Below are positions 35,041 through 35,558 of a stretch of 42,605 nt of DNA, piece after piece. Origin of the DNA: a virus. Where the stretch lies: positions 1 through 42,605 of IMG/VR virus record IMGVR_UViG_3300028800_000165; one strand, given 5' to 3'. The translations under genes and the position numbers were made by a program. The stretch's first letter is position 1. Every line of letters starts with the position of its first letter. Under the pieces are notes generated by a model, which had not been told where the DNA came from, did not search any database, and saw only the letters and a list, made by a program, of their open reading frames with translations.

Positions 35041-35180
35041 TTAATAGTGGCGTAGTTTAGAGATACTTAGCACTTTTAATGCCCGTGTCGTTAGTTCGAG
35101 TCTAACTGCATCCTTCGGGATGTATAGCTCAGTTGGTAGAGCAGGAAAAAACTCTAAACGTTTGTTCCCTCAATTTATTT
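35041..35180 (+). ncRNA. Y RNA (YrlA-like) with circularly permuted tRNA domain
   Basis: An 8-bp closing stem joins GTTTAGAG (35055-35062) to CTCTAAAC (35152-35159). Inside, in order, are a T-arm (35090-35106; 5-bp stem, loop TTCGAGT), a 7-bp acceptor-like stem (35107-35113 with 35118-35124) sealed by a UUCG tetraloop, UA, and a D-arm (GCTC AGTTGGTA GAGC, 35127-35142). This is a tRNA with the acceptor end closed and the ends moved to the anticodon side, the plan known for bacterial YrlA RNAs. CTTTTAA with a 3-bp stem near 35071-35081 recalls a Lys anticodon loop. Y RNAs tether Ro60 to partners such as PNPase or gate its RNA ring. The Ro60 gene lies 400 nt downstream. Confidence 0.85.
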
Positions 35181-35181
35181 T

Positions 35182-35315
35182 TGCGATGGCGTAGAAATTT
35201 GTTACTTAGGTGGTAACTACTTTAGTTACCGTGAAGCTAGTGAAATTCTAGCTTCCCGCGCCATATGCGGGAAACTGACATGACAAAGTTCGCCTGTACC
35301 TCGCATTTTATTTGC
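35182..35315 (+). ncRNA. Second Y-like RNA without tRNA domain
   Basis: Begins with the same TGGCGTAG, 8 nt, TACTTAG (35187-35209) as the first Y RNA. The stem is GAAATTTG (35194-35201) with CAAAGTTC (35284-35291), 8 positions with one A-G mismatch. Inside are three hairpins: GGTAACTA/TAGTTACC (35212-35230), GCTAG/CTAGC (35236-35252, extendable to 8 bp) and TTCCCGC/GCGGGAA (35253-35273). The 3' flank GCCTGTACCT matches the first RNA's GTTTGTTCCC by class. No promoter of its own is seen; it may be cut from the same transcript. Exact ends are not known. Confidence 0.6.
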
Positions 35316-35389
35316 TGCGCAAAGCACGTGTATGGCCTCTCCGATAACGGCCCGGTAATTTTAGTGGGACTTATACGTTAATTCCAGTG
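35316..35389 (+). other. Unassigned stretch between Y-like RNA and Ro60 promoter
   Basis: No coding frame. TTTGC/GCAAA (about 35311-35323) and GGCC/GGCC (about 35334-35352) could form small hairpins. TATGGC (about 35331-35336) is complementary to GCCATA in the loop of the hairpin at 35253-35273, a possible long-range contact. It may be the tail of the second Y-like RNA. Confidence 0.35.
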
Positions 35390-35419
35390 TTGAGACGTTA
35401 AAAATCTTGGTGCTAGAAT
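35390..35419 (+). promoter_or_regulatory. Extended -10 promoter for the Ro60 gene
   Basis: TTGAGA (35390-35395), 18-nt spacer, TAGAAT (35414-35419) with TG one base upstream of the -10. Predicted start about 35426, just before the attenuator-like hairpin. Confidence 0.5.
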
Positions 35420-35435
35420 GAAAACCACTACGTAC

Positions 35436-35493
35436 GGACTGACGGCTTCCTTGGAAGCTCGCGTTGTAGCTCTGAAATCAGTCCACTTTTTTT
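35436..35493 (+). terminator. Attenuator-like terminator in the Ro60 leader
   Basis: GGACTGA (35436-35442) pairs with TCAGTCC (35478-35484), followed by AC and seven T (35487-35493). An inner hairpin GCTTC-CTTG-GAAGC sits at 35445-35458 (one G may shift). It would end Y RNA readthrough or attenuate transcription from the 35390 promoter. Confidence 0.6.
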
Positions 35494-35497
35494 ACCG

Positions 35498-35558
35498 TAG
35501 CGAAGAAAAGAGTTACTTAGATTTGCATTCTTACGTCTCTTTTCGTTTATTCTCGGAG
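35498..35558 (+). promoter_or_regulatory. Y-like Ro60-binding element in the Ro60 mRNA leader
   Basis: TAGCGAA (35498-35504), stem GAAAAGAG (35505-35512) with CTCTTTTC (35537-35544), then T and TACTTAG (35513-35520) after the first strand, and the flank GTTTATTCTC (35545-35554). This repeats the layout of both Y RNAs. The SD CGGAG follows directly (35554-35558), 7 nt before the ATG, so a protein bound here could block translation. Confidence 0.6.

What the first reader, a model, noticed from the sequence alone, without database searches (positions are those of the whole stretch)
35048..35558. Three copies of one structural element with different stem sequences but conserved pairing
The pattern TRGCGWA, 8-bp stem, W, TACTTAG, then second stem strand and GYYTRTWCY occurs at 35048-35169, 35187-35301 and 35498-35554. 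The first strands are GTTTAGAG, GAAATTTG and GAAAAGAG, and the matching strands CTCTAAAC, CAAAGTTC and CTCTTTTC follow 24 to 89 nt later. Pairing is kept although sequence is not, apart from one A-G mismatch. This is covariation within one locus and points to a protein-binding module, most simply the Ro60 site. I know of no description of this element.
Basis: seen in the sequence. Interest (0 to 1): 0.88.

Follow-up and report, generated by a model that had tools for sequence, protein, structure and literature searches.

The report
Phage Y RNA array beside Ro60
A virus of bacteria carries, just before its copy of the Ro60 gene, a row of three small RNAs that share one Ro60-docking stem but have different heads, and the last one is fused to the gene's own ribosome-binding site, which suggests that Ro60 may control its own production.

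Summary
Three elements share one two-stranded module (TRGYGWA, 8-bp stem, WTACTT ... stem, GYYTRTWCY) at 35048-35168, 35187-35300 and 35498-35553; none of 200 shuffled windows gave even one as strong. Copy 1 is YrlA-like (Rfam RF02553, E 1.5e-6, below the gathering score), with a circularly permuted tRNA domain. Copy 2 has a three-hairpin head found in six related loci. Copy 3 is a head-less hairpin. The module recurs beside Ro60 genes in 115 of 129 loci and 31 of 33 held-out loci, usually as arrays, and its pairing covaries strongly. New, as far as I could check: (a) one module carrying exchangeable heads, most often none; (b) most full tRNA-like heads also have an anticodon-like loop; (c) in 9 of the 10 closest relatives the last element's outer helix is built from the Shine-Dalgarno sequence of the Ro60 gene, which suggests Ro60 autoregulation. 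Binding, expression and regulation are inferred. The main Y RNA papers were not readable here.

The parts
35006..35034 (+). sigma-70-like promoter TTGACA-17-TATATT; the start site is expected about 7-9 nt downstream, at the 5' edge of copy 1
   Evidence: 11 of 12 consensus positions; 6 promoter-like sites in the region against a shuffled mean of 1.7 (sd 1.4). Consensus match only.
35043..35173 (+). copy 1: YrlA-type Y RNA (Ro60-binding module plus circularly permuted tRNA-like head)
   Evidence: RF02553 37.5 bits, E 1.5e-6, gathering score 69
35048..35054 (+). copy 1, 5' conserved strand TGGCGTA
35055..35062 (+). copy 1, inner stem 5' strand (pairs with 35152-35159), followed by ATACTTA
35070..35082 (+). 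copy 1, anticodon-arm-like hairpin GCA-CUUUUAA-UGC
   Evidence: minimum-energy fold; class statistics
35090..35106 (+). copy 1, T-arm-like hairpin GUUAG-UUCGAGU-CUAAC
35107..35124 (+). copy 1, acceptor-like helix closed by a UUCG loop
35127..35142 (+). copy 1, D-arm-like hairpin GCUC-AGUUGGUA-GAGC
35152..35168 (+). copy 1, inner stem 3' strand and GTTTGTTCC
35183..35304 (+). copy 2: Y RNA with a three-hairpin head (hairpins about 35212-35230, 35233-35255, 35255-35272)
   Evidence: z -3.2; six related loci
35493..35558 (+). copy 3: head-less Y-type hairpin in the leader of the Ro60 gene
   Evidence: model R1 53 bits, E 3.8e-12 (this element, as L024, is one of R1's 68 training sequences)
35495..35497 (+). 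CCG, which pairs with CGG 35554-35556 and so covers part of the Shine-Dalgarno sequence
35555..35558 (+). Shine-Dalgarno GGAG, 7 nt before the Ro60 ATG, inside the outer helix of copy 3
   Evidence: predicted unpaired probability 0.02 (same sequence as L024)
35566..36915 (+). Ro60/TROVE gene, 449 aa, TROVE domain plus vWA
   Evidence: PF05731 E 1.1e-14, PF25045 E 9.6e-7; predicted fold matches 9kop, 9l5y, 2nvo, 1yvp

Best explanation
The locus is a phage Ro60-Y RNA unit. A promoter at 35006-35034 starts transcription at the edge of copy 1 and reads through three Y-type elements into the Ro60 gene. Each element has the same Ro60-docking module: an outer helix with one bulged U, an asymmetric internal loop (YGWA opposite GYYUGUU), an inner stem of 7-8 bp, and UACUU. 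Ro60 docks on this module on its outer face. The heads differ: a circularly permuted tRNA (copy 1), three hairpins (copy 2), almost nothing (copy 3). By analogy with known bacterial Y RNAs, the first two would tether Ro60 to partners or gate its channel. Copy 3 lies in the mRNA leader, and its outer helix uses the Shine-Dalgarno sequence as its 3' strand. When Ro60 is in excess over Y RNA it would dock on copy 3, hold the ribosome-binding site shut and stop making itself. Shown: the elements, their pairing, their conservation beside Ro60 genes, and the overlap with the Shine-Dalgarno sequence. Inferred: transcription, Ro60 binding, tethering, and repression. The confidence below is for the identity (Ro60-binding Y RNA array); for the repression step alone I give about 0.45.
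For: Chance is excluded. Pairing of elements chosen without using pairing: 6.18 of 7 against 3.89. In 68 short elements, 14 of 15 pairs change on both sides; covariation score 0.876 against 0.213 in shuffles and 0.19 or less in slid controls (these 68 were picked partly by pairing score). Upstream of TROVE genes: 263 elements, 0 on the reverse strand, 0 in shuffles. Held-out loci: 31 of 33 with at least one, 26 of 33 with at least two. Genome-wide in 20 bacterial genomes: 39 model hits, 36 of them near a TROVE gene. Ro60 identity and fold. Positions aligned with Xenopus K170 and H187 are invariant in 9 of 9 (the RNA-binding role of those residues is recalled). Module architecture resembles the vertebrate Ro60 site as described in PMC4726728: seven base pairs with one bulged nucleotide. 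Shine-Dalgarno overlap in 9 of the 10 closest loci; predicted unpaired probability 0.17 against 0.39, n 9 and 77, p 0.006 without correction for kinship.
Against: No expression or binding data exist for this phage. Copies 1 and 3 fold no better than shuffles (z -1.08 and -0.91). Rfam YrlA is below its gathering score, and no YrlA hit reached it in 20 related loci. Model R1, trained on short elements, misses the long-headed copies 1 and 2. Copy 1 has a weak outer helix. Some Ro60 loci lack the module: 14 of 129 and 2 of 33, Thermus phage phiLo and the Listeria P100 stretches searched. R174 of Xenopus is not kept at the aligned place (D; an R is adjacent). The Shine-Dalgarno overlap is confined to one clade; elsewhere the last element usually lies further away.
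Confidence: 0.85

Rival explanations
1. Copy 3 is an ordinary Y RNA that merely abuts the gene; its 3' end is released by processing, and the Shine-Dalgarno overlap is genome economy without regulation.
For: Short head-less elements are the commonest class anywhere in the arrays, 109 of 263, and most last elements elsewhere do not touch the Shine-Dalgarno sequence.
Against: In 9 of the 10 closest loci the spacing is held at 10-13 nt while sequences differ, the outer helix keeps pairing with different Shine-Dalgarno forms (ACCU/AGGU, UUCCG/CGGAG, UUUCAG/CUGGAG), and predicted accessibility is low.
Confidence: 0.4
2. The tRNA-like copy works as a decoy: with D, T, acceptor and anticodon-like arms it draws host anticodon nucleases or tRNA enzymes away from real tRNAs.
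For: 40 of 67 full tRNA-like heads have a 7-nt hairpin loop with U33 and a purine at 37, against a shuffled mean of 4.3 and maximum 10. Hughes et al. [quoted passage not shown]
Against: The same paper found no cleavage of YrlA. The commonest elements have no tRNA head. The anticodon stem in copy 1 has only 3 bp.
Confidence: 0.12
3. The three elements are chance or a repeat family unrelated to Ro60.
For: Folding energies of copies 1 and 3 are unremarkable.
Against: Shuffles, covariation, strand bias 263 to 0 and linkage to TROVE genes.
Confidence: 0.01

Closest known systems
YrlA, bacterial Y RNA-like A (Rfam RF02553; PDB 6CU1)
   Same: Copy 1: Ro60-binding stem made of both ends, permuted tRNA-like head with T, acceptor and D arms in that order, UACUU matching AUGCUU of the Rfam consensus, 3' strand UUGUUCC matching cUuGucG.
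   Different: Below the gathering score; adds an anticodon-like hairpin that the Rfam consensus does not show as a helix; carried by a phage in an array with other head types.
Other bacterial Y RNAs (Deinococcus Y RNA; Salmonella YrlB, named in PMC7790460)
   Same: Small RNAs encoded beside the Ro60 gene that share a Ro60-binding stem.
   Different: I could not compare sequences directly; copy 2's three-hairpin head and the head-less class with fixed module sequence are not described in the passages I read.
Vertebrate Y RNA lower stem (Ro60 site)
   Same: Seven base pairs interrupted by a single bulged nucleotide, next to an asymmetric internal loop (description in PMC4726728).
   Different: Bulged U instead of C, a larger internal loop, different sequence; PMC4726728 calls bacterial Y RNAs not homologous with the vertebrate ones.
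Autogenous translational operators, such as those of ribosomal proteins (recalled)
   Same: A protein's RNA target is copied into its own leader over the ribosome-binding site.
   Different: Here the mimicked target would be a Y RNA and the regulator Ro60; no experiment yet.

Membership tests
bacterial Y RNA (general) | encoded close to a Ro60/TROVE gene | tested here: met
   and the coordinates; 115 of 129 and 31 of 33 related loci have the module
bacterial Y RNA (general) | stem formed by the two ends, supported by covariation | tested here: met
bacterial Y RNA (general) | binds Ro60 | not testable with these tools
   no binding data; inferred from linkage and architecture
bacterial Y RNA (general) | expressed as a small RNA | not testable with these tools
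   only a promoter consensus match
YrlA (RF02553), copy 1 | scores at or above Rfam's gathering score of 69 bits | tested here: not met
   37.5 bits, E 1.5e-6 over the full model 1-114; so filed as YrlA-like, not as a member
YrlA (RF02553), copy 1 | permuted tRNA-like head with T, acceptor and D arms | tested here: met
YrlA (RF02553), copies 2 and 3 | tRNA-like head | tested here: not met
   no RF02553 match for copies 2 or 3 at E up to 5; copy 2 folds into three hairpins without a D arm, copy 3 has a short loop
vertebrate Y RNA | seven-bp lower helix with one bulged nucleotide and an asymmetric loop | tested here: inconclusive
   architecture met in the module consensus (5 plus 2 pairs around the bulge at column 6), sequence not; copy 1 has only part of the outer helix
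autogenous translational operator, copy 3 | presumed target site overlaps the ribosome-binding site of the gene of its own binding protein | tested here: met
autogenous translational operator, copy 3 | binding represses translation | not testable with these tools
   needs a reporter assay

The most novel reading that the evidence does not exclude
The array is a self-balancing ratio sensor. Ro60 binds a Y RNA mimic fused to the Shine-Dalgarno sequence of its own mRNA and shuts its own translation, while the free Y RNAs of the same array compete for Ro60 and lift the block, so protein and a set of exchangeable-head Y RNAs are made in step. Head variety within one array would let one phage Ro60 be tethered to several partners.
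Probability: 0.35. Interest if true: 0.78.

Novelty: new variant of a known kind. Interest (0 to 1): 0.6.

Why it matters
It gives a sharp, transferable definition of a bacterial and phage Ro60-docking module, which finds Y RNAs that Rfam's YrlA model misses, including the head-less class. It shows that phages and bacteria line up several Y RNAs with different heads on one docking module, so 'what does each head recruit?' becomes testable. It offers the first candidate, as far as I could check, for feedback control of Ro60 by a Y RNA mimic over its own ribosome-binding site. It also shows that some tRNA genes annotated beside phage Ro60 genes are parts of Y RNAs.

Tried and rejected
Covariance model: R1, built from 68 short elements, finds only copy 3 in the window because the other heads are long; the sequence-plus-stem scanner was therefore the main detector. 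R1 training includes copy 3's duplicate L024, so that E-value is not independent.

Rfam: no match at gathering score in the window; YrlA below the cut-off; no YrlA at gathering score in 20 related loci. In 20 bacterial genomes the RF02553 search at E up to 0.01 returned many sub-threshold places but also rang in 9 of 14 control genomes, so it was not used as proof.

Listeria phage: PMC12282133 (passages) suggests Y RNAs for three strongly transcribed regions near an Rsr homologue in phage CKA15. I searched two stretches of the related phage P100 (1-45000 and 90000-131384 of 131384) and found no module above 25.7; 45001-89999 was not searched. Thermus phage phiLo, whose Ro60 structure is solved, has no module in the stretch fetched.

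A hairpin shared with one relative in 35302-35497 (pattern CCTCTCCGNTAACGG): 119 or more viral stretches matched. By my own rough estimate chance alone would give hundreds, so it was dropped.

Three R1 hits away from TROVE genes were opened. All three hold further module elements: one lies before an ORF that I read as RtcB from its sequence (recalled, no family search), the other two are clusters of 2 and 3.

Host: the portal protein has no match in the phage collection at 1e-10, so the host stays unknown.

Literature: Chen 2014, Sim and Wolin 2018, Sim 2020 and Wang 2018 are not held, so whether arrays, the anticodon-like arm or a leader site were described there could not be checked. Searches made.

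Rows dropped: loci with identical upstream ends were counted once (129 distinct loci used), 118 elements were reduced to 114 distinct arm pairs; one search lists only loci with an in-frame ATG near the match, so L088 (gap 12) is absent there. L196 (gap 14, held-out) appears only; its Shine-Dalgarno sequence lies outside the helix.

Full report
What is there. The window is a 42,605-base viral record with phage genes (P22-like portal, terminase). At 35566-36915 lies a Ro60 gene: TROVE domain PF05731 E 1.1e-14 and Ro60-type vWA domain PF25045 E 9.6e-7. Its predicted structure (mean pLDDT 79.8) best matches a TROVE crystal structure 9kop, Ro60 of Thermus phage phiLo 9l5y, Deinococcus Rsr 2nvo and Xenopus Ro with RNA 1yvp. 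The roughly 560 bases before it carry the promoter and the three elements of the finding.

Check of the observation. All strands, gaps and the single A-G mismatch are as stated. A scanner that scores the conserved 5' strand, the UACUU box, the conserved 3' strand and the pairing of both helices, trained without the window's close relatives, gives 40.8, 39.5 and 37.7 for the three copies. The next best place in the window scores 19.9 and the other strand gives nothing at 18 or more. In 200 dinucleotide shuffles of the window the highest score was 32.9, and 0 of 200 had any match at 35 or above.

Is the pairing real? Elements were picked upstream of TROVE genes on sequence keys alone, with no use of pairing. 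114 distinct arm pairs pair at 6.18 of 7 positions on average. Swapping partners gives 3.89, and the highest of 1000 swaps is 4.25. On an alignment of 68 short elements the 15-pair structure forms in 94.2% of cells, 14 of 15 pairs change on both sides, and the covariation score is 0.876 against 0.213 in shuffles and 0.13-0.19 when partners are slid. Those 68 were chosen partly on pairing score, so one search is the cleaner test.

Where else it occurs. Loci came from viral contigs, species genomes and phage records. In 129 distinct loci the scanner finds 263 elements in 195 kb upstream of the TROVE gene, 0 on the reverse strand and 0 in shuffles. A further 27 lie downstream, and inspection shows the same module in most. 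Counting either side, 115 of 129 loci have at least one and 97 of 129 at least two. On 33 loci fetched later and not used for training, 31 have at least one and 26 at least two: 80 elements, against 1 on the reverse strand and 0 in three rounds of shuffles. With a covariance model of the short class searched in 20 whole bacterial genomes, 17 of 20 gave 39 hits, and 36 of the 39 lie on the same contig as a TROVE match and within about 3 kb. These 20 genomes are those of 20 of the 49 species-genome loci, so they were chosen for having a Ro60 gene. The other three hits were opened and also hold module elements, two of them clusters. The search scored at most 150 candidates a genome, so these counts are lower bounds.

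What it is. Copy 1 matches Rfam YrlA over the whole model (37.5 bits, E 1.5e-6) but below the gathering score of 69. Its fold shows a T arm, an acceptor-like helix closed by UUCG, and a D arm, in the order of a circularly permuted tRNA. That permutation is known for a bacterial Y RNA of solved structure, 6CU1 (PMC11472068, abstract and passages). So the element is a bacterial Y RNA, and the shared module is its Ro60-docking stem. PMC4726728 (passages) describes the vertebrate Ro60 site as a seven-base-pair helix with one bulged cytidine and a bulge on the other strand. The module here has 5 plus 2 pairs around one bulged U, then an asymmetric loop. The positions aligned with Xenopus K170 and H187 are invariant in 9 of 9 proteins. 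That these residues contact Y RNA is recalled, not read here.

The heads. Among the 263 elements 109 are short, 67 have both T-arm and D-arm signatures, 47 T only, 2 D only and 38 other; the classes are regex-based and approximate. Of the 67 full tRNA-like heads, 40 have a hairpin with a 7-nt loop, U at position 33 and a purine at 37, against a mean of 4.3 and a maximum of 10 in 500 shuffles. Copy 1 has such a loop, CUUUUAA, on a 3-bp stem. Three tRNA genes annotated in phage records overlap Y elements: tRNA-Thr in Xanthomonas phage 10KY502B, tRNA-Ser in Brevundimonas phage Kikimora and tRNA-Gln in Caulobacter phage CcrColossus. That is 3 of the 6 annotated tRNAs that I checked beside phage Ro60 genes. 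Copy 2 has three hairpins. Six related loci share this head (window, L025, L026, L027, L028, L033), with different stem sequences and similar folds. I did not run a formal covariation test on it.

The last element and the start codon. Of 106 loci with an upstream element, ten have the 3' end of the module 10-13 nt before the start codon. Nine of them are among the ten closest relatives, L024 (which is the window's own sequence) to L033, whose Ro60 identity to the window is 50-62% apart from L024. L026 is the exception, at 18 nt. In these nine the 3' strand of the outer helix is the Shine-Dalgarno sequence or overlaps it, and it pairs with a matching 5' strand in several different forms. The predicted unpaired probability of the Shine-Dalgarno sequence averages 0.17 in the nine (0.02 for the window's sequence) against 0.39 in 77 other loci, p 0.006 by a rank test that ignores kinship and base composition. 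I infer that Ro60 bound to copy 3 would keep the site closed. A strong promoter consensus lies just before copy 1, so array and gene are probably one transcript.

How it would work. Known bacterial Y RNAs tether Ro60 to PNPase (PMC8394870, passages). I expect copy 1 to do this or something close to it, copy 2 to recruit something else, and copy 3 to act in cis. None of this was tested.

Limits. No expression, binding or probing data exist for this virus. Copies 1 and 3 are not more stable than shuffles. Loci without the module exist (14 of 129 and 2 of 33); some of these are cut short. Thermus phage phiLo has none in the stretch fetched and the searched part of Listeria phage P100 has none, so the module is not universal for Ro60. 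The four main Y RNA papers were not held, so my claims of novelty for arrays, the anticodon-like arm and the leader site rest on nine searches of an open-access library only.

Verdict. The interpretation as a Ro60 site is probably right, but the class is known. What is worth following is the array with exchangeable heads and the candidate Ro60 operator.

Noticed in passing
window 35302-35497: Between copies 2 and 3 lies about 195 nt without a Y element. It holds a GGCC-UCUCCGAUAAC-GGCC hairpin that a relative (L030) keeps as GACC...GGUC, and a long stem GGACUGA...UCAGUCC followed by a T run. Function unknown.
   Followed up: partly
L017 2331-2398, L018 2269-2343, L020 1631-1698: tRNA genes annotated in three phage records (tRNA-Thr, tRNA-Ser, tRNA-Gln) overlap Y RNA elements and look like mis-annotated tRNA-like heads.
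   Followed up: yes
L353 4123-4187: A Y element away from any TROVE match in its genome stands before an ORF (5067-6437) that I read as RtcB RNA ligase from its sequence (recalled), a link to RNA repair without an adjacent Ro60.
   Followed up: partly
L355 3859-4268 (- strand) and L354 3936-4147: Two more orphan Y element clusters (3 and 2 elements) in genomes whose Ro60 gene lies elsewhere.
   Followed up: partly
window 857-2110: A 417-aa ORF looks like an SPFH/band-7 (stomatin-like) protein by eye; crAss001 also has an annotated SPFH protein near its Ro60 gene (L022 6128).
   Followed up: no
window 8782-10576: A DNA cytosine methyltransferase seems split over overlapping frames, with an HNH-like insertion and a neighbouring HNH-like ORF; read by eye only.
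   Followed up: no
L357 about 2360-2430 and 5121-5247: Arthrobacter phage Atuin, with a distant Ro60, has a head-less Y-like hairpin before its tRNA-Trp (seen by eye, not reported by the scanner) and another element at 5121 (score 37.0).
   Followed up: partly
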